This document shows, one piece after another, positions 870 through 28,995 of a DNA stretch of 29,140 nt. The first letter of the stretch is position 1; every line of letters starts with the position of its first letter. This DNA is from a virus, in the IMG/VR virus record IMGVR_UViG_3300045922_000875, positions 1 to 29,140 of that record. One strand, 5' to 3'. Made by a program: the position numbers and the translations under genes. The notes under the pieces are model-generated. The model had not been told where the DNA came from. It did no database searches and saw nothing but the letters and a program-made list of their open reading frames with translations.

Positions 870-1547
870 TTATTGAGAAACTGTAGACCAGTAAGTGTCT
901 AAACGTTCTACCCACATCTTAGAGTATTTGTCAAACTCTCTGCCTTCAATGGTCCAGCTCTGTACACCGTCTTCTCGGTTGGTCATCAAAATAATAAATT
1001 TGCGTATGTTGGTTCCGTATTGAATATTATGAGCCAAGCAGTAAGCAGAAGCTTGCAAAAAATAATCAACAACGTGTTCAGTTTTTTTGTTCTTTTTTGA
1101 AGTTTTGAAATCTATTATTGCTGGTGTGCCGTTATAAAGTCCCACACAATCAGCAGTGCCGGCATATAATTCGGGATAAAATAACGGGGCTTCCAGTCCC
1201 CATACTTCAGTTAACAACGCCAAATGCGATTGAATTACTCTATCGCTCATATCACGCGCCATAACATGTATTTGGTTAGTGCCTTTTGGCCTAGGTTCGT
1301 TGCTTATAAAGCACTCCAAATGCTTGTGAACCAATGTTCCCAAATTAGCAGCTTCGGTTGTTTGTCGAGCTGCTTCATCTTCACCGATACGCTTGCGCCA
1401 ATTCATCAATGCTGTTTTGTCACCTGTTGCAGCCAACACCGTAGTTACAGACGGCACTGTGCCAGATGGGGTATCATAATATCTACCAATTTGTTTTGTA
1501 ACTCGTTGTAAAGGAACGTAGTCAAAAATTGGGTTTATTTTCGGCAT
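870..1547 (-). CDS. PD-(D/E)XK exonuclease, Cas4/RecB-like
   Basis: This 225-aa protein has the full motif set of RecB-type single-domain nucleases. GTLVH (residues 70-74) carries the motif I histidine. TADCVG supplies the first metal-binding aspartate (about D133). IIDFKTS contains the D-x-K pair (D146, K148), and QASAY matches the QxxxY motif (Q165, Y169). Such enzymes are metal-dependent DNA exonucleases; in T4-like phages they probably process DNA ends for recombination or recycle host DNA. Its ATG lies 13 bases inside the end of the preceding small ORF, so translation is probably coupled. It is the last gene of the operon that starts near 6345. The fold assignment is strong; the precise substrate is unknown. 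Confidence 0.85.
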   Translation of the reverse strand: MPKINPIFDYVPLQRVTKQIGRYYDTPSGTVPSVTTVLAATGDKTALMNWRKRIGEDEAARQTTEAANLGTLVHKHLECFISNEPRPKGTNQIHVMARDMSDRVIQSHLALLTEVWGLEAPLFYPELYAGTADCVGLYNGTPAIIDFKTSKKNKKTEHVVDYFLQASAYCLAHNIQYGTNIRKFIILMTNREDGVQSWTIEGREFDKYSKMWVERLDTYWSTVSQ

Positions 1548-6393: not shown

Positions 6394-6720
6394 TCAGATA
6401 GAAAAACTCTTGCCGCAACCGCAAGAATTAGATGCTGCACTAACTTTTAATCCAAAACCAGACCTCATTAACGAACGTTCGTACACTAATCTTGCTGGTC
6501 CAATAAATTCTAAATCATCTGGGTGTACACAAACCAACTCATCAACAACAATATCTTCTTGATTTTGCTTGGCAACCCAATCAAACGTCACTTCAAATCC
6601 CGAACAGCCTCCTGCACCAATAATGATTTTCAACAAGCCGGGGCTGGCTTGTTTCATACTCGCTAGCTGCGAAACTGCAGAATCGTCAATCAACAGTGTT
6701 TGAGAATTTTTCAAGCTCAT
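6394..6720 (-). CDS. A-type iron-sulfur cluster carrier (IscA/HesB/ErpA family)
   Basis: This 108-aa protein has the three conserved cysteines of A-type carriers: GAGGCSGFE (C39) and SCGCGKSF (C100, C102). Length and motif spacing match the family closely. These proteins hold and deliver [Fe-S] clusters to apoproteins in the cytosol. It is an auxiliary-metabolism-type gene in a phage. It might support host metabolism, a phage Fe-S enzyme, or load metal into a virion protein; the sequence does not decide. Its ATG lies 35 bases inside the end of the preceding gene. Because the domain starts within the first ten residues, the overlap appears real. It is the last gene of the 6394-9072 operon. Confidence 0.93.
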   Translation of the reverse strand: MSLKNSQTLLIDDSAVSQLASMKQASPGLLKIIIGAGGCSGFEVTFDWVAKQNQEDIVVDELVCVHPDDLEFIGPARLVYERSLMRSGFGLKVSAASNSCGCGKSFSI

Positions 6721-10881: not shown

Positions 10882-11697
10882 TTACTTATTTAAATGACGA
10901 CTTACTGATTCGGGCCAATCTAAGTTGCGATGATCGTATGATACATCCTTCTCAAAATTTGCAAAAATTTGATCAGCAAGATGAGGAAGGTATTTTTCAA
11001 TTGCTGCAATAACTGTCTCAGCACTTTCCAAGTCGTTAGCCGATGCCGATTTTCCAAACAATGTTTGTGCAATCTCAGTTGGATTTTTGATATTCTTTAT
11101 GATTTTTTCAGTTTTTTTTGCCTGGTTTTTCTTTTGAATACGCTTGCGTAAGCTCAATCCATCTCTGGGAGAAAATACATATCCCACAGTTTCAATATAA
11201 TCGCCATGATCAGTTGTTTGACGTTGTGCAATTGCAACATTTGCCAAGAGTAAATTTCGATATTTTCCTGGCAATTTAGAATTAGCTGAACTATAGTAGT
11301 ATGTGCGATTCCAATCTGTGTCACCTGAAAAAAAGTCCACCTGTGTATAACCAGTGCGTCGACGCTTCTGTTGTTGTGCATCATATTGATCCCGACTTGG
11401 ATCGTAATTTTGAATGGGAAAATTCAAATGCACGGTGTTGCCTGTTTTTTTAACTGCATCAGCACCATAAATGCTCTGTAACATACGAAAAAGATCTGCT
11501 GGTTCCCAATCAATTGCAATGTCAATATCGCCTGAAAACTGTTTTTTACCAGTAGTGCCAAGTAGATTTTGTTTTAACCCCGTTAGACCCGTTTGCTGTT
11601 CTAATTTGGCGAGTGTGGGTGCAACTTCGTCGCGATGGATACTTCCGGTATTGGGAAATACATTCCCCCCTTCCAACAATAGATCACGAATCAGCAT
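10882..11697 (-). CDS. Pol-beta-type nucleotidyltransferase
   Basis: This 271-aa protein carries the nucleotidyltransferase signature LGTTGKK followed by SGDIDIAID. The GD-x-D pair gives metal ligands D57 and D59, and YTQVDFF supplies a likely third aspartate (D121). Family members transfer a nucleotide to RNA, protein or a small molecule; the substrate cannot be read here. The N-terminus MLIRDLLLEGGNVF ends a short hydrophobic stretch in L-L-E followed by G, like a prohead-protease target. The residues after 165 are helical and basic (RKRIQKKNQAKKTEKIIKN). It overlaps the ligase-type gene by 14 bases, and the two probably act in one pathway such as RNA end repair. Confidence 0.85.
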   Translation of the reverse strand: MLIRDLLLEGGNVFPNTGSIHRDEVAPTLAKLEQQTGLTGLKQNLLGTTGKKQFSGDIDIAIDWEPADLFRMLQSIYGADAVKKTGNTVHLNFPIQNYDPSRDQYDAQQQKRRRTGYTQVDFFSGDTDWNRTYYYSSANSKLPGKYRNLLLANVAIAQRQTTDHGDYIETVGYVFSPRDGLSLRKRIQKKNQAKKTEKIIKNIKNPTEIAQTLFGKSASANDLESAETVIAAIEKYLPHLADQIFANFEKDVSYDHRNLDWPESVSRHLNK

Positions 11698-13120
11698 TTA
11701 AATACTCTGGCTTCACAAGCAATGACACCAACTGTGCTGGGGTTTTGGCAGTTTGAACCGCTTGCTTGACTGCGGCAATTTCAGCAAACAAAGTAGCAAA
11801 GCTCTGTTTGGTTTTTTCATCAATAGCGCCGTCATATTTTAAAGAATATTGTTTAGATCCAACAGTAACATTTTTAGTTAGTTTTTGCTTGTTTTTTTCA
11901 TACCAATCCAAAATGCGCTGCGCCACTTTTTGAGTTTTGTCCAATTGCAACAACCAAGAGTTGCGAACATCCTCTAATTTTATCCCTTTGCTCAGAGCTG
12001 CAAGTCTTTCTTCAGGAGAGTTGCCTAACTCTTGCACATAACGCCGAGCCAAACTGGTAGCTACTTGGGGATGACCAATTTCTTCAGCCATAGTCAAATA
12101 TGTTTTACCTAGCAATGATCTCAATCGGCTTGCCCCGGTTGACTTCAATAGATTTCGCATGCCCCAATTGAATTTGTTAAACATTGTAAACACATTCTTG
12201 TCAACAAGTTTAAACAATGTGTTGGTTTTAGGGTCGCGAAATACCAATCCTTCAATCCACCCGCCATCTTTAACATCAGGCCCGAATGCACTGGAAACGT
12301 TACGAACTAGCGAATCCAAAAGCTGATCTTTAATGTCCAACTTAAACGAATCAAACTGTTTGATTAATTCGGCTTTTTTTCTTTTTAAGTCAGGTAACAC
12401 CAATGCCCATTTGTCTTTGTGAACTCTATCCGGGCGTTTGTTTAGTGGAAGACTTATAACCTCAACATTGGAAAAATCCATAATTCCACTTGGCGCTGTT
12501 AAAAACCGTTCTAACTCATCCAGTTTGTATTCTAATACTTTTGAGGAAAATGCGCGTGAAACTAGTTTGGGATCAACCGATGGCACTTTTACAAATCGCC
12601 AAGTGTAGGATGCATTTGTTTTTGATATTGTTTTACCATCCACAGTATATGGCACATTTTTCAATGCAACAGAAACTGTTTTACCATCCAGCAATGCATG
12701 CAATTCCTCAATATTCGGAGAACCAGCAACAGCTCTTAAAAAAACAATTTGATTTATATCGCCTGAGTACGGAACTGTGTTTGGCAGTGCGCCAAATAAA
12801 ATTTCACATTCAACTAAGTCACCCAAAGTCATTACATTGGCTTTGCGAATACGCGGGGCCACTTTTTCCAATGCCAAATGTGCTGCTTTGAAACCCACTT
12901 CCCAAAAATTATTACCAAAGTCGTCAACGGAATAAAACTGCTTACCACCTTTGCCTTCTCGAGAAGTATAAAAATTACCTGTACCGTCAAACCCAAAAGA
13001 TAAATTAGCTCCATCTAGCTTTTCGGTAACAATCATTTCATTGCCAAATCTCACTGCTCGCAAGAACTCGTCAACTGCCAAGTCTTCAATGTGCGATATA
13101 CCGTCCATTAATAACTGCAT
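11684..13120 (-). CDS. Polynucleotide ligase-superfamily protein (RNA/DNA ligase-like)
   Basis: This 478-aa protein has the covalent nucleotidyltransferase motifs. EKLDGANLSF is motif I (K-x-D-G, lysine about K34), LVECEILFG resembles motif III, IEGLVFRD is motif IV (about 289-296), and LFKLVDK is motif V (about 303-309). Such enzymes attach AMP to the lysine and join nucleic-acid ends. The region after 310 is helical, unlike the OB domain of standard DNA ligases, so an RNA ligase-like enzyme is more likely. I use ATG 13120; TTG codons just upstream are also in frame. It is coupled to the nucleotidyltransferase downstream. The substrate (tRNA, DNA nicks or other) is unknown. Confidence 0.85.
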   Translation of the reverse strand: MQLLMDGISHIEDLAVDEFLRAVRFGNEMIVTEKLDGANLSFGFDGTGNFYTSREGKGGKQFYSVDDFGNNFWEVGFKAAHLALEKVAPRIRKANVMTLGDLVECEILFGALPNTVPYSGDINQIVFLRAVAGSPNIEELHALLDGKTVSVALKNVPYTVDGKTISKTNASYTWRFVKVPSVDPKLVSRAFSSKVLEYKLDELERFLTAPSGIMDFSNVEVISLPLNKRPDRVHKDKWALVLPDLKRKKAELIKQFDSFKLDIKDQLLDSLVRNVSSAFGPDVKDGGWIEGLVFRDPKTNTLFKLVDKNVFTMFNKFNWGMRNLLKSTGASRLRSLLGKTYLTMAEEIGHPQVATSLARRYVQELGNSPEERLAALSKGIKLEDVRNSWLLQLDKTQKVAQRILDWYEKNKQKLTKNVTVGSKQYSLKYDGAIDEKTKQSFATLFAEIAAVKQAVQTAKTPAQLVSLLVKPEYLNADS

Positions 13121-13132
13121 CAACAATCTCGC

Positions 13133-14415: not shown

Positions 14416-15837
14416 TCATGATTTAATTTTATTCATTAATGCTAGAAGTTTGGTTTGAGTAGTTACAGATTCCGGTTTTTCTGCGGAATTAAGTGAGGAT
14501 TGTAATGAATTTGCTGAGTCTGTTCTAGTAGATACACGTTTGAGTCTTAAATCAGAAATAGTAGTGCCCGTGCTTTTTGGTGATTCCTCTATTCGTGCAT
14601 TTTCGTCATAACCCTCCAGGTCCGAAATGCGCATCGATTCCATATTAAATGCCAATAACACTTTTGAACCAACACCAGATGAGCTTCTAGTTTTCAAAAA
14701 CTGTACTTTGTATTCACCACGTTGTTTCATTGTATCGCTTGTGGAAATAGCGATAACATTGTCCGCAGTGTTGATTTTAGAAATACCACCAGCAATCATC
14801 GATTGATCATATTCTGTTTCTTGTACTGCGGAACGATTGAGCTGAGATGCTGAAACACATAATAGACTCAATTCGACTGCTAATGCCCGCAATTCTTCAG
14901 TAACAAACTTGTCCTTCACAAACAAATCCGATGGATTAATTCTGGTATTATTTGGATACAACAGATCCAAATAGTCAATCACTATTGCATCAGGTTTAAC
15001 ACCTGTTTGTATTTCAAATTCTTTCAAATAAGCTTTGATTCCGTTGGAAGTTGTGCCAGGTGGCAAATATTTTATCTGTAGTCTCCCCATGCGCTTGGCT
15101 TCCATTTTAATCTTCAATTCTACAGTATCCAAATTCTTAAACAGTTCTCGTGTGGATATATGAGTTAGCATGGAGTCAATACGCATGGCTGTTAGCAACT
15201 CCGATAATTCAGCTGTGATGTAAATTACATTCAACCCCATTTGCACCCAGTTAAGAGATATGTTTTGGAGGAACAGCGACTTGCCTGTACCAGAATTGCC
15301 AGCAAACAGGGTGATTTCTCCCCGATTTACCCCACCGTATAACTTTTGATCAATGCTTTTCCATCCTGTAGACACCATGTTGTTCTTATCACGCAACTTC
15401 AGCAGTCGCGTTTTGGGATCAGAAAAATATTCTGTTCCCAAATCATTTTGTAGAGATATTAACAGTGCATCTTTTAAATCTTTTTCCAAAGTGCCATATT
15501 CACCGTTAGTAAGCAAATCAGGTGCCGAATGTATTACATTCTCAATGGCCTTGTGTCGGCAATATTCTTCAACTTCTTTTAAAAACGCTTTGATTTTGTT
15601 TTCATCCAATTGGTCATATTGTTCAAACGTTGTGCCAAATTTGGCATTTACTTCTGCATGCAGCGGCACAGTTCGATGTTCTTGCACATATTCCAACAAG
15701 TGTTTAACTGGTTTTTTGAGCTTGCCATCAAAAAAATTTGGACTTAAAATTGCCTGGCATCGCGCAAACGCTTCACTAGAACTCAGCATGAAAGAAATCA
15801 AATATTCTTGAAACTTTATATTATACTCTTGAGTCAT
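14416..15837 (-). CDS. 41: Replicative DNA helicase, T4 gp41 / DnaB-like
   Basis: This 473-aa protein, close to the T4 gp41 length of 475, is a hexameric 5'-3' replicative helicase that unwinds DNA ahead of the fork and partners the primase. Residues 1-150 are the helical N-terminal domain. The RecA-like motor has Walker A GNSGTGKS (180-187), Walker B DAIVIDYLDLL, and the DnaB-type SASQLNRSA segment. The C-terminus from ~400 is S/T-rich and less conserved. It follows the primase gene by three bases, giving a primosome operon. No helicase loader (gp59) is recognised in this window. Confidence 0.95.
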   Translation of the reverse strand: MTQEYNIKFQEYLISFMLSSSEAFARCQAILSPNFFDGKLKKPVKHLLEYVQEHRTVPLHAEVNAKFGTTFEQYDQLDENKIKAFLKEVEEYCRHKAIENVIHSAPDLLTNGEYGTLEKDLKDALLISLQNDLGTEYFSDPKTRLLKLRDKNNMVSTGWKSIDQKLYGGVNRGEITLFAGNSGTGKSLFLQNISLNWVQMGLNVIYITAELSELLTAMRIDSMLTHISTRELFKNLDTVELKIKMEAKRMGRLQIKYLPPGTTSNGIKAYLKEFEIQTGVKPDAIVIDYLDLLYPNNTRINPSDLFVKDKFVTEELRALAVELSLLCVSASQLNRSAVQETEYDQSMIAGGISKINTADNVIAISTSDTMKQRGEYKVQFLKTRSSSGVGSKVLLAFNMESMRISDLEGYDENARIEESPKSTGTTISDLRLKRVSTRTDSANSLQSSLNSAEKPESVTTQTKLLALMNKIKS

Positions 15838-15840
15838 AAA

Positions 15841-16866
15841 TTATCCTTGAAATTTTTTCATTAAATTAACAATCGCTAGTTTATTGTTTGTAGCAGATTC
15901 CAAAATACTTTGCAAGGTGTATATGGATCCATATTTTTTTACTGCGTCAGCAACATCTTTGATGCCGTCTTCCCAATAATCATAAGAAGGAATTGACACA
16001 TGCCATCCCAATGCTATTGCTTGTTCGATCAATGTTTTAGAGCCGCGGTCACGGTCAGGAACAACAATGGGGGTTTTTCCCGAGTCCATTATCCATTTTG
16101 CTTGCTCAGTTGATATGGAATTTTTCAATATTGCCACGCCATCTATGCCAATTGCATCAAATGGACCTTCAACCACACACACAAACTTTCTTAGTGGCTT
16201 GTTCAAGCAATCTGCATTATACAATACATTTACATTGTTTGCAGTTTCTTTAACATATTTCACACCCGGCACAATGGATCGTGCAATATAACCAATAGTT
16301 TGCTTTTTATAAACAATTGGCAAACACACACGTTGATTAAATGTCCATTCCCCAGAAATAGGAGTCCAAAACATTGCGTGATCTGATATGTTGAGTTCTC
16401 GTCCTTGAACATAACGATCCACTGCTTGCCATTCGGGCGTGGGATTTTTACGCCAAAATGCAAAACTTTTGGAACCAATTGGAAGCGCAACATCATCAAA
16501 TTCTAAAACGAACTCTGGTTCCGATTGCACCTGTGAACTGAAGTTATCCTTATCACTTGCTATTTGCCAACATTTAAATGCTATTTTTTTAATTTCGTCA
16601 GAATCAAACCCCAACCATTGCAAAAATTGTTTGTTTTTCCCTGACAACTGCCGTCCTTGTTCCCATGCTGTTCTAAATCCACAATTAAAACAATTATAAG
16701 AAAAACCACTCGAAGTGAAAAGCACATTGCCTCGGCCACGGGTGTCGACTCTCTCCCCGCGATGGTGGCAACAAACTGCATTAAACCCTTGCCAACCTTT
16801 AGCATGCTGTTTTGTTCGTGGCAGTCTGCTTTTTATTATGTCTAGCACCCAACCAGCATCGCTCAT
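15841..16866 (-). CDS. 61: DNA primase, T4 gp61-like
   Basis: This 341-aa protein, equal to the typical gp61 size, makes RNA primers at the fork with gp41. The N-terminus has a zinc-binding module (VCCHHRG, then YNCFNCGF). The TOPRIM domain shows VVEGPFDAIGIDG (catalytic glutamate) and IVVPDRDRGS (D-x-D). The start has no Shine-Dalgarno. Upstream on the minus strand are a TTGACT hexamer and an AT-rich TTATATAG ending two bases before the ATG. Together they may be a host-type early promoter giving a nearly leaderless mRNA. gp41 follows directly. Confidence 0.94.
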   Translation of the reverse strand: MSDAGWVLDIIKSRLPRTKQHAKGWQGFNAVCCHHRGERVDTRGRGNVLFTSSGFSYNCFNCGFRTAWEQGRQLSGKNKQFLQWLGFDSDEIKKIAFKCWQIASDKDNFSSQVQSEPEFVLEFDDVALPIGSKSFAFWRKNPTPEWQAVDRYVQGRELNISDHAMFWTPISGEWTFNQRVCLPIVYKKQTIGYIARSIVPGVKYVKETANNVNVLYNADCLNKPLRKFVCVVEGPFDAIGIDGVAILKNSISTEQAKWIMDSGKTPIVVPDRDRGSKTLIEQAIALGWHVSIPSYDYWEDGIKDVADAVKKYGSIYTLQSILESATNNKLAIVNLMKKFQG

Positions 16867-16900
16867 ACTATATAATTAAGCGCAATTGCAAAAAAGTCAA
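16867..16900 (-). promoter_or_regulatory. Possible sigma70-type early promoter for primase-helicase
   Basis: On the minus strand TTGACT (16900-16895) is followed after about 17 bases by AATTAT, or after 19-20 bases by TTATAT/TATATA. The next bases are the ATG of the primase. The match is imperfect and overlaps the end of the preceding gene. Confidence 0.3.
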
Positions 16901-17697
16901 TTTTTAAACAAAACCTTGGTGAAAAAACCTTCGTTAATTGGATCATTCTCGTAAACAAATCGAATCCAAGAATAATTGCCTTCAATATTAAACCAATCAA
17001 TGCCTGTGAATCCGGAATAAATTTTCTTCTCAATTTCAATCCAGCTTTCAAATGCATCCGGCGGAACCGATTCCAATGTGCCCTGTATGGTAAAAGTTCC
17101 AATCCAATTTTCCAAATATACTGCTGCTGTCATCAATCCATCCGTTAGGTCCAATAGTGCATCACCACGCAAAGCGGATGAAACATACACTGTGGTTATG
17201 GGCTGATTGTTAATCATTACTGGCAAAAACGCAGATGCTAACAGCTGAATAGAAGGTTTGGGAGGTGGAAGTGCGCCATCCTTTAGTTCAAAAAATCCGC
17301 GTGCTCGTTGATCCATGTCAGTGTAAAGCAATGTTTCGTTGCCATCTTCGTTGATCATCAACACAGTGTAACGATAGTAGCCAATTTCAAAATCTTGTAC
17401 TTCGCCTGGGGTGATTCTAGCCAATGCTTGACCTTTATATGGATCAAGGATCTGCATGGGCTTTTGTAGCACAATTTCATTGTTGAAATCATTAACTACA
17501 GTCAGCAACAATTTCTTACCCAATAATGGTATTGGCTTGCGATCCAAGTTACGAATTAAAAAATCCATCTCATTGGTTACGCCTTTATAAAGTTTAAAGT
17601 CAACATCGTTTGGATTCATATTTCTGTTCGGCGCTCCTCGATTGCTTTGAACCAACCATACTTGAATGGGGTTGTAATATAGATAAATGTCTACCAT
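16897..17697 (-). CDS. Probable virion structural protein
   Basis: I prefer ATG 17697 (MVDIYLYYNPIQVWL, 266 aa); ATG 17721 would add eight residues and also lacks a Shine-Dalgarno. The protein is beta-rich with aromatic-hydrophobic alternation, including YYRYTVLMINEDGNETLLYT, a proline patch GALPPPKPS, and VYLENWIGTFTIQGTLES. There are no enzymatic motifs. Such composition is typical of baseplate, neck or fibre-associated proteins of T4-like phages, so it is probably structural even though it precedes the primase. It is divergent from the plus-strand gene at 17754. Confidence 0.7.
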   Translation of the reverse strand: MVDIYLYYNPIQVWLVQSNRGAPNRNMNPNDVDFKLYKGVTNEMDFLIRNLDRKPIPLLGKKLLLTVVNDFNNEIVLQKPMQILDPYKGQALARITPGEVQDFEIGYYRYTVLMINEDGNETLLYTDMDQRARGFFELKDGALPPPKPSIQLLASAFLPVMINNQPITTVYVSSALRGDALLDLTDGLMTAAVYLENWIGTFTIQGTLESVPPDAFESWIEIEKKIYSGFTGIDWFNIEGNYSWIRFVYENDPINEGFFTKVLFKN

Positions 17698-17722
17698 TTT
17701 TTTATTTACCGAATTTATCATC

Positions 17723-17753: not shown

Positions 17754-18140
17754 ATGTCAAATATAAACACATCCGAACTGCAAAATATAGCCAAGGAGTA
17801 TCCTTTTTTAAGCTTTTGCACATATTCCACACAAGAATACTTGGGCATTATTCAAAACTCCGACAACCAAATTGTTTCAATGTATGTTTACAACCTCATC
17901 CCCACTAAAGAGTTGCGAAAGAAATTTTTAAAGCTTGGCGACGAATGGTGGTGGAACTCTGCAAGAACTTGCCCAATTAATTTGTTCTTAAAAACAGATT
18001 TTGTCCCGTTTAAATCCTATTTGCGGACCTTCAATAAGAAAGAATTCCACATCTTGCTTGGACCTTGCATGAGCATATCAGATAACTTAAGCAAGCGAGT
18101 CAAACGTAAACAAATAACATTAGTTAAGAACATTCTATAG
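17754..18140 (+). CDS. Conserved T4-like phage hypothetical protein, plus strand
   Basis: The frame is open from 17610, but the ATG at 17754 is the only start downstream of the late promoter box. It gives 128 aa beginning MSNINTSELQNIAKEYPFLS. The segments YLGIIQNSDNQIVSMY, LGDEWWWNSARTCPINLFL and HILLGP resemble a conserved hypothetical of marine T4-like phages (recalled). No catalytic motif is seen. It runs against the direction of nearly all neighbours and overlaps the 3' end of the convergent DnaE-like gene by 17 bases. Late transcription here would produce RNA antisense to that gene's end. Confidence 0.8.
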   Translation: MSNINTSELQNIAKEYPFLSFCTYSTQEYLGIIQNSDNQIVSMYVYNLIPTKELRKKFLKLGDEWWWNSARTCPINLFLKTDFVPFKSYLRTFNKKEFHILLGPCMSISDNLSKRVKRKQITLVKNIL

Positions 18141-18690
18141 ATTGTGATGCTAACAAATTCAACTGAACCACAATAGATGTTGCATACGCAATCGCATGAG
18201 ATTTTTTAAAATAATATTTCTCTGTTGGAATCCAAATTTCTGCTTCAATTGTTTGCCAAGACTTGCCGATTAAATGTCTTTTGCCTGGACGCAACAATGC
18301 AATAAACATCGCCAGCTGTTCAATTGAACTGGGCAAATGCATTTGCAACAAATCATAATGTGCATTTATGTGCGCCAGTTGTTCCACAATCTCACGATAT
18401 GACAGCAAATTCCAATTTGGTTCAGTAGTTAATAATTCAACCAAATGCTGTTCAGATTTCACTCCAGTATAAATGGAATTATTTAAAAAATCAAACTTTT
18501 GCCAACCCAGCTGTTCTGCTTGCTCAAAATCAAAAGCAGAAATTCCCGAATCATCCTGAGGAATCTGTTGAAAGTATACGCCAACCAAATGCTTTGTTAA
18601 ATTTCCGTCACGCAGCATTGATGCTGGAACACACTGAATCAGCTGCAGAAGATTATCTCGATCTTGTAGGTCTATATCAACATCAGGCAT
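18124..18690 (-). CDS. Miniature C-family DNA polymerase (DnaE)-like protein
   Basis: This 188-aa protein holds five signatures of bacterial DnaE in the correct order. MPDVDIDLQDRD matches P-D-F-D-x-D-F with the palm aspartates (D5, D7). TKHLVGVYF (33-40) parallels H-A-x-G-V-V. WQKFDFLNN parallels the third-aspartate motif K-F-D-F-L-G (D67). ALLRPGKR (131-138) parallels A-L-x-R-P-G. YYFKKSHAIAYA (159-170) parallels F-N-K-S-H-x-x-A-Y. Real DnaE needs several hundred residues for the same span, so most of the fingers and linking parts are missing. Whether it polymerises is unknown; a nucleotide- or template-binding relic with a regulatory role is equally possible. I recall similar proteins in other T4-like phages, usually unannotated. 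ATG follows GGGGTT by eight bases. Confidence 0.75.
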   Translation of the reverse strand: MPDVDIDLQDRDNLLQLIQCVPASMLRDGNLTKHLVGVYFQQIPQDDSGISAFDFEQAEQLGWQKFDFLNNSIYTGVKSEQHLVELLTTEPNWNLLSYREIVEQLAHINAHYDLLQMHLPSSIEQLAMFIALLRPGKRHLIGKSWQTIEAEIWIPTEKYYFKKSHAIAYATSIVVQLNLLASQSIECS

Positions 18691-22873: not shown

Positions 22874-24334
22874 TTACCAGTCAACTTTTGTTATTTTAAA
22901 AGTGTATTGTGCGTCTTTATAATATTTTTTTCGAGCAGACAAATGCCGTGACGAATATTTGGTTGTTGCACATATATCATAAACTTTTAAATAATCTTTG
23001 TCTTTTGCGCGGCGGATACCTCGTCCAATACTTTGTATGGTTCTCACAAAACTTTTGCCAGGTTCAAACAAAAACAAATTGTAGATTCGGGGAACGTTAA
23101 TACCCACCGCTGCCACGCCAGACGTTGCCAAAATAACATTGTTGTTGGTTTCGTTAATGTTATCATAATGTTCACGACGAACGGTTGTATCAACTGCACC
23201 CGAAATAAAAACTGAGTCAGGTATTTGACTTTGCAAATACTTCCCTGTCTCAATGTTGTTAAACAATACTAAAGTGTTACCCGTTTTTGATACCTCAACA
23301 ATTTTTTTAGCAACCCAATCTAAACGAGATTTCTCTTTGTTTAGATATGCACTTTCGTCCTGCCAACTTTTAAATGCGCGATTTTCTTTCAATTGTATTA
23401 CTTCAATATCTAAATTAGCCAATATGCCCGCATCTTGCAATTCTTTAGCTGCCAAACGAGACACAACTGGCCCAATACTCACATATAAATGAAAAGCGTC
23501 AAAGTCTTCTTTTGGCACAGTGCCAGTTAAACCCCAGCGCACAGGAACACGAGAAAATGGACCAGTCAACAGTGTTTTGAGTTCAGTGCCTTTTGCTGAA
23601 TGGCTTTCGTCAACAATAACACATACAACATCACTAAGCCATTCACAAATGCTTTCTTCATCTTTGTTTGATTGACTTTTTTTGCTCTTTTTTGAAAAAA
23701 TACTCAAGCTTTGCCAAGTAGCAATGGTATGAGTGCGATTATATTCTTTTCTATTTCCATAAAACACCCCTACATCCAATCCTAAATTTTTGTAGTCACT
23801 TTCCGTTTGCTCAACCAATTGCTTGTTGGGAACAATAACAATTGTTCGTCCATATGGCTCACAAAAATATGAAAGAGCTGCGGTGATAAGAGTTTTGCCG
23901 GCTCCAGTTGCAACCTCCTGTATGGATTGCGGATTATCTAAAAATTTGTTGATTACTTCTACCTGATAATCACGTAAAATAATAGGCTCACCTTCAGCTG
24001 GGTGTCCTTTTGGCCAAACTCGATTTGCAAACACTAATTGGTCAATTTTTTCAAATTGCAAATCAAATTCAGTGCGTCGGTCATCCAATTCAATTTCGTA
24101 TCCAGCATCTTGCACTATGGGCAACAGCTGATCTAGCAAGTTCAAATAAGTGGATCCGCCAATTGTTGCAAAGCTCACAGTGCCATCCCATCTGCCCATT
24201 TTAAATGAAGGCAAATGAAATGCATATGGAACAGTGAATTTTAATTTGTTGACTATTTTTCGTCGAGTTACAGGATCTAAGCCTTCAAATTTCACATTTA
24301 CTTCATCAAGAATTTTTAGCTGACATGTTTTCAT
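22874..24334 (-). CDS. uvsW: UvsW-type RNA/DNA helicase
   Basis: This 486-aa protein, close to T4 UvsW at 503, is an SF2 helicase that unwinds branched DNA and R-loops and drives the switch to recombination-dependent replication. It shows a Q-like LRDYQ (120-124), Walker A ATGAGKT (142-148), motif II VDESHSAKG (D-E-S-H at 242-245), motif III-like GLTGTVPK, and motif VI QSIGRGIRR (434-442). The N-terminal ~110 residues are the substrate-binding domain. It overlaps the unknown gene upstream as ATGA. Gene order UvsW, two ORFs, UvsY mirrors T4. Confidence 0.95.
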   Translation of the reverse strand: MKTCQLKILDEVNVKFEGLDPVTRRKIVNKLKFTVPYAFHLPSFKMGRWDGTVSFATIGGSTYLNLLDQLLPIVQDAGYEIELDDRRTEFDLQFEKIDQLVFANRVWPKGHPAEGEPIILRDYQVEVINKFLDNPQSIQEVATGAGKTLITAALSYFCEPYGRTIVIVPNKQLVEQTESDYKNLGLDVGVFYGNRKEYNRTHTIATWQSLSIFSKKSKKSQSNKDEESICEWLSDVVCVIVDESHSAKGTELKTLLTGPFSRVPVRWGLTGTVPKEDFDAFHLYVSIGPVVSRLAAKELQDAGILANLDIEVIQLKENRAFKSWQDESAYLNKEKSRLDWVAKKIVEVSKTGNTLVLFNNIETGKYLQSQIPDSVFISGAVDTTVRREHYDNINETNNNVILATSGVAAVGINVPRIYNLFLFEPGKSFVRTIQSIGRGIRRAKDKDYLKVYDICATTKYSSRHLSARKKYYKDAQYTFKITKVDW

Positions 24335-25101
24335 AATTCTACCAAAGGTTCTATACCAAGAAATTTAATAAAAAAAGGTGTATAATTTTGCTCGTTAGGC
24401 CCTATAAATCTCAAAGGACCCGAGCCAAAAGACCATGAAAAAAATTGATTCATAGCTTCTTGCGAGTCCAACAACATCAATTTTTGCATGGGTTCAGTCA
24501 ATTGATATTTGACATTTTGGTTTATTTGGTCGGGTAATGAAAATACGTCATCAAAAATCACAATACCCAAATGTTGCACAAGCTTAGATACTATTGAAAT
24601 TTCTGTTGAAAAATTTGCATGAAATCCAAAAACAATCAGCATGTCTGGCTGATATTCATCTAACAATTGAGCCAGTGACTGTTTTTTTGATATCATTATC
24701 AACACTTCTGTTTCAGGTGTGTTTTCATTAAATGAGATCGCTGAAGCAGACAATTCCAAATATTTTGCAATATAGTTAACTAGCTGTTGTTTGCGGGATG
24801 AATAAGTCAAATGTAAATGATATTGGTATGATATCAATATCTTTTTTATACCCCGTTCGCGCTTGTAACGACCATACAGCTCAAATGCCTTGCTACAATC
24901 ATCAAATGCAGCAGCACCCAACAAAATACGGCCATGTCGCAGCTTTATTCGTTCGTATATTTTTTGCATGTGAGACAACCGCTGAAATTCCTCAGCAAGT
25001 TCATCAATTGCTGATGGATATTTTTCTATCCCCGACAATTTACAAAACAGTTGCAGATCATATGCTTTGGATGGAGTTAACTTTACTTCAAAGCGTTTCA
25101 T
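24331..25101 (-). CDS. Unknown recombination-cluster protein
   Basis: I start at ATG 25101 (MKRFEVKLTPSKAYDLQLFC, 256 aa), with AGGAA just upstream; an upstream frame extension is inside the neighbouring gene. The protein is alpha/beta with Rossmann-like alternation in ~85-190 (ISYQYHLHLTYSSRKQQ; PDMLIVFGFHANFS; HLGIVIFDDVFSLP). There are no Walker or nuclease motifs. It overlaps the HARP-like gene by 14 bases and UvsW by 4, so all three are co-translated. Given location between UvsY and UvsW a recombination or repair role is likely, but the function is not recognisable. Confidence 0.72.
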   Translation of the reverse strand: MKRFEVKLTPSKAYDLQLFCKLSGIEKYPSAIDELAEEFQRLSHMQKIYERIKLRHGRILLGAAAFDDCSKAFELYGRYKRERGIKKILISYQYHLHLTYSSRKQQLVNYIAKYLELSASAISFNENTPETEVLIMISKKQSLAQLLDEYQPDMLIVFGFHANFSTEISIVSKLVQHLGIVIFDDVFSLPDQINQNVKYQLTEPMQKLMLLDSQEAMNQFFSWSFGSGPLRFIGPNEQNYTPFFIKFLGIEPLVEL

Positions 25102-25780
25102 ATTTTTCCTGCCAAGAATACAATAATAAATTTTCCAACACTTGGTTGCCCACAACGGTAATACCTAAACTTGTTGAGTTTTGTTGAATATCTGCACCAT
25201 GGGTGTTTGATGTATATATCATATATTCTAATATGCTTTTGGAAAAGTTATCAAGTTCAAATTTATGCTTCTTTAAAAACTTGGGAAAAGTCTCATAGTC
25301 TTTTTTGGCTTTTAGCAAAATTATCCAAAATTTATAGTCCGAATTCCATTTACATTCGGATACTGATGCTTGTAGATCGTGTTTGACCGTGGGATTGAAA
25401 TTGAATCTAACTGCAAACCTCGAGTTTCCCAAATATCTAACTTCTCTGGGAATTGCAATACTTTTGTAAAGAGGAGTTCGATATACCGGTGCGTCAACCA
25501 ACTGCATCAATGCTGTTTCGTCAACACCAGATGCAATTACAAATTCCAAATGCTTGTTTACAATCTTCCAAAACAATTGACTTTGTCGTTCGCTCAATCC
25601 TTTACCTTCAGCTATTTTATAGCCAATATCAGTTAAAAACTCGACATCATATGGTATTTTAATTGCAACATTTCGTGGTGTACCATTTGTTGGCGTATAT
25701 CTGAAAGTTTGATAGAGTACGTTTGCTATGTGTTGAATCAAATCTTCAACTGTTTTAGGGGAAATAATCATTTTACTCAT
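25088..25780 (-). CDS. HARP-like module protein, possible fork or annealing factor
   Basis: This 230-aa protein has an N-terminal helical half with AEGKGLSERQSQLFWKIVN (a G-x-x-L-S-x-x-Q element). At ~118-153 is NSRFAVRFNFNPTVKHDL followed by KWNSDYKFW. The latter fits the HARP pattern (F-x-V-x-F-x-Y-x-P ... W-x-x-x-x-K-x-W) found before the helicase motor of SMARCAL1-type annealing helicases. No motor is attached here. UvsW is encoded two genes downstream, so it may supply DNA binding or branch recognition in trans. The HARP reading is pattern-based. Starts at 25780 or 25771 are possible. Confidence 0.7.
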   Translation of the reverse strand: MSKMIISPKTVEDLIQHIANVLYQTFRYTPTNGTPRNVAIKIPYDVEFLTDIGYKIAEGKGLSERQSQLFWKIVNKHLEFVIASGVDETALMQLVDAPVYRTPLYKSIAIPREVRYLGNSRFAVRFNFNPTVKHDLQASVSECKWNSDYKFWIILLKAKKDYETFPKFLKKHKFELDNFSKSILEYMIYTSNTHGADIQQNSTSLGITVVGNQVLENLLLYSWQEKYETL

Positions 25781-25810
25781 ATCAAATAATACAACAACAA
25801 ATTGCGTTTG

Positions 25811-26338
25811 TCAATCATCCGTATCAGATTCGGGCAAACTATAATCTCTGGCTTTTGGAACATAAATAGGTTTAATAATAACGTCTTCTAAGCCAGCTGT
25901 TCTCAATTTAGTAATATTGGAAATTTGATAGGCTTTGATATCCAATGCTTTGTGAATCGCTAAAAATTGATTGCGCAACAACGCAAACCGATTTATCAAA
26001 TGAGCAAAATTTATTACATCTGGTTCAGCATCGGCATAACGTTCGGCATCTTTAGATGACAATTGCTTGTTGTAACCTTCTAAGTAATGCTTGAATGCCT
26101 TGGATTTAGCTTGCTTAAACTTAATAGTTAAAAACTCTAAAATAGATTCAATTTCTTGTAGCTGCCGGTATCGCAGTTCAACAATACCTGGTAGCGAGGA
26201 GCTTTCTTGCTCTAAGCTACCAGATATATTGATTTCTTTTCGAGCCTGCTCTAGCTCTTTTTCAAAAAAAGAAATTGCATCCAACAATGGATTTGAAAAA
26301 TCCACAGCAGATGCAATTTCATTGTACCATTCACTCAT
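25811..26338 (-). CDS. uvsY: UvsY-type recombination mediator
   Basis: I use ATG 26338 (MSEWYNEIASAVDFSN, 175 aa); an in-frame TTG six bases upstream is less likely. The core LEQARKEINISGSLEQ, PGIVELRYRQLQEIESIL, FKHYLEGYNKQLSSKDAERY and ISNITKLRTAGLEDV fits the UvsY family of T4-like phages as I know it. UvsY binds single-stranded DNA and loads UvsX onto gp32-coated strands. It is slightly longer than T4 UvsY (137 aa) because of both ends. It lies two genes from UvsX. Confidence 0.9.
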   Translation of the reverse strand: MSEWYNEIASAVDFSNPLLDAISFFEKELEQARKEINISGSLEQESSSLPGIVELRYRQLQEIESILEFLTIKFKQAKSKAFKHYLEGYNKQLSSKDAERYADAEPDVINFAHLINRFALLRNQFLAIHKALDIKAYQISNITKLRTAGLEDVIIKPIYVPKARDYSLPESDTDD

Positions 26339-26340
26339 TG

Positions 26341-26589
26341 TCAATCATCGTATGAATATTCTTCGTCTAGGTCTTCGTCAGAATCGTTTCGTTCCAAATG
26401 CTCTCTTAAAGCTTCGTCTAAACTACGATCATGTCCTTGCAAACCCAATTCTTCTAAATCCCAACCATGATCTATAAAAATCGAAACAAATCGATCTGCT
26501 ACTTCTTGCCGTTTGTTGGCAGGTAATGCTTCTTTTATTGTATCCCACAGTTCTAATACAAAATTTGTTTCGCTATCCGCGTCCCTCAT
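26341..26589 (-). CDS. Small acidic protein between UvsX and UvsY
   Basis: I start at ATG 26589 (MRDADSETNFVLELWDTIKE, 82 aa); AGGAGA eight bases upstream fixes it, and an in-frame TTG further upstream is unlikely. The second half is very acidic (ERNDSDEDLDEEYSYDD). Acidic tails in T4 replication proteins often mediate contacts with DNA-binding partners, but that is inference. The UvsY start follows its stop by two bases. No family recognised. Confidence 0.75.
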   Translation of the reverse strand: MRDADSETNFVLELWDTIKEALPANKRQEVADRFVSIFIDHGWDLEELGLQGHDRSLDEALREHLERNDSDEDLDEEYSYDD

Positions 26590-26628
26590 CGCTTGTTCTC
26601 CTAAAAAATACAATTAATTATACAATTA

Positions 26629-27708
26629 TTAGTGTTCTGTTGTTTCATCACTTGATGAAATGTTTTCAGATTCCGCAAACTTTGCATTTTTCCAAACTGC
26701 CATTACTCGATCCAAACAGTTGTCCTCATTCTTTTCCCACTGCTTGCGGAAATATTTCAACACAGTGCCATCTGGCATTGTATAGGTGAGTTTGTTCCCA
26801 TCCTTTTTCAAGCTGCCTTTACTTTCAAACAAGTCAACAAGACCAGAGAAAGGGTCCATTCCTGATTCCCAAGGAATTTTAATTTCCACTGTTTCAAAAG
26901 GCTTGTTGTAACGAGTTTTCATAACTCGACACTGCGCACGAATACCGTTGACTTCAGATGTTTTGTTTCCGTCAGTATCTTCTTTTAACTTGAGCTTGCG
27001 CATTGCAACAACAATAGAGGATGCATAGATGAAGCCTTGGCCGCCTGAGATCACGTCATCTGGATTGAACATGTCCTGTGATGCATAAGAGTGGTTGGTA
27101 ACAACCAATCCAACTTCATATTCACCAAACATATTCACGCAGTTTCGAACCAATGCAGTTAATGCTTTGGGCTTGCGGCCCATGTCTCCCTTAAGCTCAC
27201 CGGCTTCGAACTGACTTACGTCAGTTTGAGTCAACAACATACCAAGAGAATCAATTACAAACAACACTTTGGGTCGATCGCTTGGTATTACTGTATCATA
27301 CTGCTGTTTGTAATCTTTCATAAAATCAGATATGGTTTTGGCTACATCATCAATCATTGCCATATTCAACTTCAAAAGTTTTTTCTCGGATGTATCTACA
27401 CCAAGCGGATGCAACCAAGTTTCATCCAATGCATTTTCAGTATCAATCAGCACAACATAAATTCCCTGTTGTTGTGCATTTCGAATCAAGTTGCCCGAAC
27501 AAATAAATGACTTGCCAGATCCCGACTGCCCGGCAAACATAGTTACTTTTCCAAGCGGAACTCCCTTAGTAAAGTCACCCGAAATTGCATAGTTTAGTGC
27601 ATAATTTCCTGTGTCAATCCAAGTAGTGGGATCGTGAAATCCAATAGAAATACCGGGAATTGCTTTAGTTAAATCTTTTCTAAATTTTGAAATATCAAAA
27701 GGTCTCAT
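26629..27708 (-). CDS. uvsX: UvsX recombinase (RecA/RadA family)
   Basis: This 359-aa strand-exchange recombinase matches T4 UvsX (391 aa) in layout. It has Walker A GQSGSGKS (60-67), Walker B VLFVIDSLGMLL (D153), VVTNHSYASQD, and VISGGQGFIYASS in the L2/ATP-cap region. It forms filaments on single-stranded DNA with UvsY and gp32 and catalyses invasion for recombination-dependent replication. The C-terminus is Ser/Glu-rich (SENISSSDETTEH), typical of a regulatory acidic tail. A GGGAG Shine-Dalgarno precedes the ATG. Confidence 0.96.
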   Translation of the reverse strand: MRPFDISKFRKDLTKAIPGISIGFHDPTTWIDTGNYALNYAISGDFTKGVPLGKVTMFAGQSGSGKSFICSGNLIRNAQQQGIYVVLIDTENALDETWLHPLGVDTSEKKLLKLNMAMIDDVAKTISDFMKDYKQQYDTVIPSDRPKVLFVIDSLGMLLTQTDVSQFEAGELKGDMGRKPKALTALVRNCVNMFGEYEVGLVVTNHSYASQDMFNPDDVISGGQGFIYASSIVVAMRKLKLKEDTDGNKTSEVNGIRAQCRVMKTRYNKPFETVEIKIPWESGMDPFSGLVDLFESKGSLKKDGNKLTYTMPDGTVLKYFRKQWEKNEDNCLDRVMAVWKNAKFAESENISSSDETTEH

Positions 27709-27745
27709 GTTTTATCTCCCAAAAAAGTCAAATGTGCTTGTATAA

Positions 27746-27874
27746 TTATGTTGTTCTATAAAAATCAATAAAACTAACTAAACGCTTCAACGGGGATGCC
27801 TTAGGCATTTCTACCTCTGGTCTTAATTCCTCTCGACGTCTGTAATCGGCTAATTCGGTCCGATGCAAATCCAT
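27746..27874 (-). CDS. Small 42-aa ORF between gp32 and UvsX
   Basis: ATG 27874 begins MDLHRTELADYRRREELRPE, then VEMPKASPLKRLVSFIDFYR and TT, stop at 27746. The charged and aromatic make-up looks like a protein rather than noise, and it fills the gap between two core genes in the same direction. It lacks a clear Shine-Dalgarno at the ATG; AAAGG lies upstream of an in-frame TTG at 27886. No family recognised. Confidence 0.5.
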   Translation of the reverse strand: MDLHRTELADYRRREELRPEVEMPKASPLKRLVSFIDFYRTT

Positions 27875-27951
27875 AAAGATCGTCAAGACCTTTAAGTAAA
27901 ATGTTCATTCTTGATAACCTTTTGCATTGCAATACAAGCACACTTGAAAAG

Positions 27952-28995
27952 TCACTGCTTTTTACGCTGACGAATCATTTCAAGAATCTTAGCGGCGTCG
28001 GGAGCTTTTTCTCCCGACGAAGCAGTATTAGGAGAGGTTGTGACTTTTGGTGTTGCAACTTCTATTTCAGACTCATTGTCACTGTCGGTCTGAGCAGAAT
28101 CGTTTTCATCCTTAGCAACTTGCTTGCGAAGTCTGGCAAGAGCTTCGGTTGGTTTTGCGTCAGCAATCTTAGTTGCATTTAATGGTTCTCCGTCGTCAGA
28201 TACAGTCCCACCGCCCATGCCCATGGGCTTGTAGAATTTGCCCCAACGAGCGGGGTCATACGCTTCGCCGTCAACAGACGCTCGAAACATATCTTTAATT
28301 ACTTCCAATTCTTCACTGGAAGGTTCTTTTGGCAAGAACTGTTTTAGATCGCTCAACCCAAAACGTTCAATTGCTGCACGTTCATTGGCAGTCAAAGCAC
28401 GTGACTTTAACACAAACTTTGAAGTAGCATAGTCAGCATATTGTCCTTTTTTAGTTTTTTGCAAACGGAAATCTCTACCGTTGTCAAAATCCACTACCAA
28501 GTCTTCCATATCAGGATCCATCAATGAATTCTTAACAATTTCATAAATGGAAGGGTTGATGATAAAGCGTCGAATTGGATTTTCTGGGAGATCTTTTTCT
28601 TCCAAACCATCTTTTACTACAAATCCCTGGAAAATATAGCTTTTCTTTTTCCAGTATAAACGCGCAGTTTCAATCATTGATGGATCCTTCCACCAAGGAC
28701 GAGTTTCTGTCAAAATTGGGCAAGGCTTACCATACATTTCCATGCATGGCACTTGCACTACGGTTGGCTTGTCGTGTTCACCAACAATGCCAGCAAATGG
28801 CAGTTTGATGATCAAACGCTCGACCCAGAAGAATGTATTGTTGGGATTGCCGTCCGGCAAAAATCTAATTTCTGAGGAGCTGTTATCTGGAAGATTCCAA
28901 AAAGGGTAAACTGCTTTATCCCCGGATGAGTTACGTTGTTCGTTTTTTTGCTGCTGAGATTGCAGCTTGCGACGAATTTCTTCTAATGATGCCAT
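27952..28995 (-). CDS. 32: gp32 single-stranded DNA-binding protein
   Basis: This 347-aa protein coats single-stranded DNA and coordinates replication, recombination and repair. The N-terminus MASLEEIRRKLQSQQQ is the basic cooperativity (LAST-like) domain. The core follows with AVYPFWNLPDNSSSEIRFL, LIIKLPFAGIVGEHDK and VQVPCMEMYGKPCPIL. The C-terminus is acidic (DENDSAQTDSDNESEIE), the protein-interaction tail. T4 gp32 binds zinc with one His and three Cys. Here H74, C84 and C92 are visible, but no fourth ligand is evident after C92 (C-P-I-L rather than C-P-x-C). AAAGGG precedes the ATG. Confidence 0.93.
   Translation of the reverse strand: MASLEEIRRKLQSQQQKNEQRNSSGDKAVYPFWNLPDNSSSEIRFLPDGNPNNTFFWVERLIIKLPFAGIVGEHDKPTVVQVPCMEMYGKPCPILTETRPWWKDPSMIETARLYWKKKSYIFQGFVVKDGLEEKDLPENPIRRFIINPSIYEIVKNSLMDPDMEDLVVDFDNGRDFRLQKTKKGQYADYATSKFVLKSRALTANERAAIERFGLSDLKQFLPKEPSSEELEVIKDMFRASVDGEAYDPARWGKFYKPMGMGGGTVSDDGEPLNATKIADAKPTEALARLRKQVAKDENDSAQTDSDNESEIEVATPKVTTSPNTASSGEKAPDAAKILEMIRQRKKQ

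What the first reader, a model, noticed from the sequence alone, without database searches (positions are those of the whole stretch)
18124..18690. A 188-residue protein carrying five DnaE polymerase motifs in order
The sequence shows P-D-V-D-I-D, K-H-x-x-G-V, K-F-D-F-L, L-x-R-P-G and F-x-K-S-H-A-x-A-Y, spaced over fewer than 170 residues. In bacterial DnaE these elements span several hundred residues of palm and fingers, and the three catalytic aspartates correspond to D5, D7 and D67 here. T4-like phages use a family-B polymerase (gp43), so a shrunken C-family palm is unexpected. It may be a minimal polymerase, a decoy or regulator of host Pol III, or a relic with nucleotide binding. I recall unannotated relatives in other T4-like phages, so the family may be widespread but undescribed.
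Basis: partly seen in the sequence, partly recalled or inferred. Interest (0 to 1): 0.82.

Follow-up and report, generated by a model that had tools for sequence, protein, structure and literature searches.

The report
Half of a split mini DNA polymerase
This small phage gene encodes the catalytic half of a stripped-down bacterial-type DNA polymerase whose other half lies in a separate, distant gene in every related giant phage tested in full; the split enzyme was predicted from genomes in 2021 but, as far as I could find, has never been tested in the laboratory.

Summary
The ORF (18690-18124, minus strand, 188 aa) carries the five DnaE motifs in order, far beyond chance. It belongs to a large jumbo-phage family (PHROG 11778). 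All motifs are invariant in 17 cultured-phage and 49 metagenomic sequences compared, including the residues matching E. coli D401, D403, D405, D555, K553 and the steric-gate H760. The predicted fold matches only Pol III alpha.

It is not a complete polymerase. All 11 cultured relatives searched in full encode a second ~175-aa protein (PHROG 11127), usually tens of kb away. It carries the GxGRGS nucleotide-binding part of the palm and stops where this protein starts (E. coli residues 393 | 399). Joined, the two align colinearly with DnaE. PHP, most of the thumb, much of the fingers, OB and clamp-binding parts are missing. The phages also encode a T4-type family-B polymerase.

Iyer et al. 2021 (PMC7824862) already described this split minimal Pol III alpha, so the window is a new member of a known, experimentally untested family. 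Most likely it is one subunit of an active two-chain accessory polymerase; its exact job is inference. The partner gene lies outside this 29-kb fragment.

The parts
18124..18690 (-). C-terminal half ('B') of the split minimal Pol III alpha: Mg2+-binding palm strands plus reduced fingers, 188 aa
   Evidence: PHROG 11778 E=1.2e-64; AF2 pLDDT 90.6; Foldseek top 13 PDB hits all Pol III alpha; hhalign to DnaE
18670..18684 (-). D-x-D-x-D, residues 3-7 (E. coli D401/D403/D405): metal-binding catalytic Asp pair plus the DnaE-type Asp
   Evidence: invariant in 17/17 and 49/49 rows; strand E4-8 in the model
18580..18591 (-). H34-x-x-G37 (E. coli H511/G514)
   Evidence: invariant in both alignments
18484..18498 (-). 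K65-x-D67-x-L69 (E. coli K553/D555/L557): third catalytic Asp
   Evidence: invariant in both alignments; strand E66-70 in the model
18280..18291 (-). R134-P135-x-K137 (E. coli R639/P640 'RPG')
   Evidence: invariant; aligned to DnaE by hhalign
18184..18210 (-). F-K-K-S-H165-A-x-x-Y169 at the start of the O helix; H165 aligns with steric-gate H760 of E. coli DnaE
   Evidence: H165 and Y169 invariant; helix 163-187; H760 role from PMC8485763
17754..18140 (+). Convergent small gene (PHROG 11637, unknown) whose end overlaps the end of B; found next to B in nearly all annotated relatives
   Evidence: positions
14416..17721 (-). Conserved downstream block: phage structural-type protein (PHROG 14467), DNA primase, DnaB/gp41-type helicase
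   Evidence: same order
22874..28995 (-). Upstream replication/recombination genes: UvsW-type helicase, UvsX recombinase, gp32-type SSB

Best explanation
The gene encodes the metal-binding half of a two-chain, minimal C-family (Pol III alpha/DnaE-type) DNA polymerase. The other half, a ~175-aa protein with the GxGRGS nucleotide-binding part of the palm, is a separate gene. The two chains meet without covalent linkage at the loop just before the catalytic D-x-D-x-D strand and rebuild one active site. They probably use two-metal chemistry to add dNTPs, with H165 as sugar gate. With no PHP, OB or clamp-binding domain and very small thumb and fingers, the enzyme should have low processivity. It most likely works as an accessory polymerase beside the phage's family-B replicase, for repair, recombination-linked gap filling or primer extension near the primase-helicase. 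Shown: homology, split point, co-occurrence, conserved active-site residues, intact family-B polymerase. Inferred: assembly, catalysis and role.
For: (1) Ten of ten jumbo phages tested carry both halves and a family-B polymerase, and Slickus01 does too. (2) The partner stops at the split in all 10 phage sequences and, with rare short tails, in nearly all IMG/VR copies. (3) Concatenated halves align to DnaE end to end in order (global probability 99.7, E 5e-26); B alone scores 61.9 against a maximum of 26.4 in 30 column-shuffled controls. (4) Catalytic residues are invariant in B and GRGS in the partner. (5) Both predicted folds match Pol III alpha only. (6) dN/dS median 0.13 in 8 pairs. (7) B sits beside primase-helicase, and the partner a few genes from the clamp loader in GAP32. 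(8) Same reading in Iyer et al. 2021.
Against: No experiment exists. The partner gene is not in the 29-kb window, so its presence in this phage is inferred from relatives. One 359-kb contig (G005) has the partner and a family-B polymerase but no detectable B. The fingers segment that holds E. coli R709 is missing, so activity may be weak. S164, next to the steric gate, is replaced by P or A in many relatives. No model of the A-B complex could be made.
Confidence: 0.72

Rival explanations
1. A non-catalytic scaffold: the two-chain palm still forms and binds nucleotide or primer-template DNA, but acts as an architectural or regulatory subunit of the family-B replisome (clamp or primase contact) without synthesising DNA.
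For: Loss of most of the thumb, of the fingers segment with R709 and of OB and clamp-binding parts; an intact family-B polymerase is present in the cultured genomes.
Against: Strict invariance of all metal-binding Asp, K65 and H165 and of GRGS in the partner is more than a scaffold needs.
Confidence: 0.15
2. A decoy or regulator of host Pol III that mimics part of the host alpha subunit to trap beta clamp, tau or epsilon, or to poison the host holoenzyme.
For: The host replicase is a C-family enzyme; the proteins are small.
Against: The parts of DnaE that contact clamp, tau and epsilon (PHP, OB, CTD) are exactly those absent; what is kept is the active site. The genes lie in the phage's own replication block and are conserved across phages of very different hosts.
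Confidence: 0.05
3. B works alone as a minimal nucleotidyltransferase, and the partner is unrelated to it.
For: B keeps all three catalytic Asp and folds confidently on its own.
Against: The GRGS palm element is conserved in the DnaE set compared here and is supplied by a co-occurring gene that ends exactly where B begins.
Confidence: 0.05

Closest known systems
Split minimal Pol III alpha of 'group 2.2' jumbo phages (Iyer et al. 2021, PMC7824862); PHROG 11778 + PHROG 11127
   Same: Two separate, distant genes: N-terminal nucleotide-binding half and C-terminal Mg2+/template half, beside a family-B polymerase. The window protein is a full-length member of the C-terminal half (53.8% identical to the Agrobacterium phage Atu_ph07 copy).
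   Different: The partner could not be looked for in the window's own genome (29-kb fragment).
Bacterial DnaE (E. coli Pol III alpha)
   Same: Same palm fold, same ordered catalytic and steric-gate residues, colinear alignment.
   Different: 1160 aa in one chain with PHP, full thumb and fingers, OB and clamp-binding parts. Here two chains of about 175-190 aa with only palm and reduced fingers. D5-H34 spans 29 residues against 108, and R134-H165 31 against 121.
Full-length DnaE-like polymerases of Streptomyces, Mycobacterium and Pseudomonas (Pbunavirus) phages (PHROG 405)
   Same: Phage-borne C-family polymerases.
   Different: Single chains of about 1000-1200 aa, much closer to bacterial DnaE. 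The Streptomyces phage Yasdnil record with such an enzyme had no family-B polymerase match.
Intein-split DnaE of cyanobacteria
   Same: DnaE encoded by two genes.
   Different: Those halves carry split inteins and are spliced into one chain. Here neither half has extra sequence at the break, and the break is at another place (the place of the cyanobacterial break is from my own knowledge).

Membership tests
Split minimal Pol III alpha, C-terminal half (PHROG 11778) | Profile match over the full length | tested here: met
   E=1.2e-64, residues 3-183
Split minimal Pol III alpha, C-terminal half (PHROG 11778) | Syntenic place upstream of structural protein, primase and DnaB helicase | tested here: met
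Split minimal Pol III alpha, C-terminal half (PHROG 11778) | Partner half (GxGRGS protein, PHROG 11127) encoded elsewhere in the genome | tested here: inconclusive
   Met in 11/11 cultured relatives. Not in the 29-kb window, but in relatives it lies 11-224 kb from B, mostly beyond what this fragment covers
Split minimal Pol III alpha, C-terminal half (PHROG 11778) | Family-B polymerase in the same genome | tested here: inconclusive
   Met in 11/11 cultured relatives; the own genome is a fragment
C-family DNA polymerase (DnaE) | Catalytic Asp matching E. coli D401, D403, D555 | tested here: met
   D3, D5, D67; invariant in both alignments
C-family DNA polymerase (DnaE) | Extra Asp D405 typical of DnaE groups (PMC3919608) | tested here: met
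   D7, invariant
C-family DNA polymerase (DnaE) | Pol III alpha palm fold | tested here: met
   Foldseek top 13 all Pol III alpha, best E 7.6e-4, next unrelated hit probability 0.03
C-family DNA polymerase (DnaE) | GxGRGS palm motif in the same chain | tested here: not met
   Absent from the 188-aa chain; supplied in trans by the partner in relatives
C-family DNA polymerase (DnaE) | Curated Pfam cut-off for PF07733 | tested here: not met
   10.6 bits against 23.9; profile-profile comparison needed
C-family DNA polymerase (DnaE) | DNA polymerase activity | not testable with these tools
   needs biochemistry

The most novel reading that the evidence does not exclude
The two-chain protein is the smallest known working C-family polymerase (about 365 residues in all, without PHP, full thumb or clamp-binding parts). 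It forms a dedicated second phage polymerase working with the family-B replicase, a division of labour not shown in any virus as far as I know, and single-chain PHP-less relatives in other giant phages represent an unsplit stage.
Probability: 0.35. Interest if true: 0.75.

Novelty: new member of a known kind. Interest (0 to 1): 0.42.

Why it matters
If the pair is active it would define the minimum of a C-family polymerase and show a phage running a bacterial-type polymerase beside a T4-type one. It is directly testable: two genes of about 0.5 kb, a known split point, known catalytic and steric-gate residues, and cultured relatives (GAP32, RaK2, PA5oct, Atu_ph07). The idea itself has been in print since 2021.

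Tried and rejected
A direct single-sequence search against the PDB gave only a chance hit to a dynein chain. Pfam alone missed it (10.6 bits). Single-sequence search of viral contigs found nothing; the profile search found hundreds. A weak phage hit to Citrobacter phage Merlin is the antisense of uvsX and was rejected. Intein or trans-splicing was considered: the partner has a stop codon at the split and B its own start, with no extra sequence, so rejected. The 563-575-aa GRGS-like ORF found near B in two marine contigs is not the partner but a single-chain DnaE. The relic reading was rejected on invariance and dN/dS. The distance between the Asp side chains could not be measured because no coordinates are returned.

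Full report
What is there. The finding lies on the minus strand, 18690 to 18124, an ATG-started ORF of 188 codons; the plus strand there is closed. The five DnaE-like motifs are present in order at residues 3, 34, 65, 131 and 163. In 300,000 shuffles of the same composition none showed four or more of them in any order. The same patterns occur in E. coli DnaE at 401, 511, 553, 636 and 758. D3 and D5 therefore match the catalytic D401 and D403, D7 matches D405, and D67 matches D555. The literature gives D401, D403 and D555 as the metal-binding residues and D405 as an additional Asp absolutely conserved in DnaE groups (PMC3919608).

Family. The protein is a full-length member of PHROG 11778 (E=1.2e-64). 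tblastn finds it at 37-54% identity over 80% or more of its length in 61 phage records: Agrobacterium phage Atu_ph07, Sinorhizobium phage Phosso, Pseudomonas PA5oct and Paride, Klebsiella RaK2, Cronobacter GAP32, Pectobacterium CBB, Escherichia PBECO4, Vibrio 2.275.O, Salicola SCTP-2, Xanthomonas XacN1, Stenotrophomonas CM1 and others; Alishewanella phage Slickus01 matches over 77% of the length. In an alignment of 17 sequences (window plus cultured phages) and one of 49 (window plus metagenomic contigs), D3, D5, D7, H34, G37, K65, D67, L69, R134, P135, K137, H165 and Y169 are all invariant. Eight pairs of suitable divergence give dN/dS 0.05-0.23, median 0.13. This is a conserved, functioning gene.

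The other half. Searching ten relatives for the Pfam model of the Pol III alpha NTPase domain (PF07733) found, in all ten, a second small ORF scoring above the curated cut-off, always over positions about 16-96 of the model. These proteins (about 170-190 aa, PHROG 11127) end in G-x-G-R-G-S followed by a conserved stretch of about 30 residues, E-F-[LF] and, within a few residues, the stop; metagenomic copies end at the same place apart from occasional short tails. A profile of them matches E. coli DnaE residues 209-393. B starts at the residue matching 399-401. So the DnaE palm is cut in the loop between the GRGS helix region and the catalytic strand. Joined in silico, the pairs from ten phages align to DnaE in one colinear path (global mode probability 99.7, E 5e-26); B alone scores 61.9 against a maximum of 26.4 for 30 column-shuffled controls.

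Fold. AlphaFold2 with family alignments gives confident models for both halves (B pLDDT 90.6; partner 93.3). Foldseek against the PDB returns Pol III alpha entries as the top 13 hits for B (E from 7.6e-4; next hit probability 0.03) and as the top 12 for the partner (probability 0.63-1.00, E from 4.4e-3). D3-D7 lie at or next to one strand (4-8) and D67 on another (66-70). The distance between the aspartates could not be measured because coordinates are not returned.

What is missing. Spacing in B against E. coli: D5-H34 29 against 108 residues (most of the thumb gone), H34-K65 31 against 42, D67-R134 67 against 84, R134-H165 31 against 121 (a large part of the fingers gone, including the segment with R709). 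PHP, OB and clamp-binding regions have no counterpart in either chain. H165 falls on H760, identified by structural modelling as the steric gate in the O helix (PMC8485763). This argues that discrimination for dNTPs was kept.

Context. In the window, B sits between a block with UvsW-type helicase, UvsX and gp32-type SSB and a block with a structural-type protein, primase and DnaB helicase. The local order is conserved in relatives (in Phosso with one extra gene). The partner lies 11-224 kb from B in cultured relatives, for example 34 kb in RaK2 and GAP32 and 182 kb in Atu_ph07, and in GAP32 a few genes before the gp44-type clamp loader. All ten relatives, and Slickus01, carry a family-B polymerase, with the SLYP motif in all ten and DTDS in nine of the ten held loci. 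Of seven metagenomic contigs over 200 kb chosen for the partner, six also hold B; G005 does not.

Mechanism. The best-supported reading is that the two chains associate and rebuild one C-family active site. The conserved chemistry argues for catalysis; the lack of clamp-binding and DNA-gripping parts argues for short synthesis; the presence of an intact family-B replicase and the position of the genes argue for an accessory job in repair, recombination-linked gap filling or primer extension. The first statement is strongly supported, catalysis moderately, the exact role weakly. A non-catalytic scaffold is the main rival. A decoy for host Pol III is unlikely because the host-contact parts are what was lost.

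Known or new. Iyer et al. [quoted passage not shown] Earlier genome papers had noticed the N-terminal half alone (CBB_328, PMC5259590; Atu_ph07 gp316, PMC6102473; that these are the N-terminal half is my reading of size and Pfam match), and 52% of one group of marine jumbo phages carry PF07733 (PMC9123017). I found no experimental study in the held library. The window is therefore a new member of a described but untested kind. Points I did not find in the passages read: the exact split point, conservation of the steric-gate His and the D405 equivalent, the correction of the catalytic numbering, and single-chain PHP-less DnaE proteins of 563-575 aa in other giant-phage sequences.

Noticed in passing
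L089:15133-16821, L095:16124-17812, L217:15001-16725: Single-chain DnaE-like proteins of 563-574 aa without a PHP domain. Two marine contigs carry one about 5 kb from the mini B gene; the 484-kb phage LR756508 carries one with a family-B polymerase and no split pair. Possible unsplit stage or parallel acquisition.
   Followed up: partly
L001:15073-15567 (Atu_ph07 FDI40_gp074): The annotated start lies about 27 codons downstream of the likely start, so the database protein lacks the catalytic D-x-D-x-D.
   Followed up: yes
L010 (GAP32_282) and similar records: Several records call B a 'putative membrane protein'; probably the long O helix near the C-terminus mistaken for a transmembrane segment.
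   Followed up: no
window 17754-18140, + strand: Small convergent gene of PHROG 11637 (unknown function) overlapping the end of B by 17 bases; kept next to B in nearly all relatives examined.
   Followed up: partly
window 11684-13126, - strand: Likely RNA/DNA ligase (EKLDGANLSF motif; PF09414 E=2e-5, just under the cut-off).
   Followed up: partly
window 10882-11697, - strand: Protein with a nucleotidyltransferase-like LGTTGKKQFSGDIDIAID stretch next to the ligase-like gene; no Pfam or PHROG match.
   Followed up: partly
window 6394-6720, - strand: A-type iron-sulphur carrier-like protein (PF01521, just under the cut-off).
   Followed up: no
window 870-1547, - strand: PD-(D/E)XK nuclease family protein (PF12705 above the cut-off).
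   Followed up: no
G005 (contig of L139, 359 kb): Large contig with the partner half and a family-B polymerase but no detectable B; a gap in the contig or real loss.
   Followed up: no
L024 and L027 (Atu_ph07, PA5oct); W11 = Slickus01 record: The family-B polymerase itself seems to be split over two ORFs in Atu_ph07, PA5oct and Slickus01.
   Followed up: no
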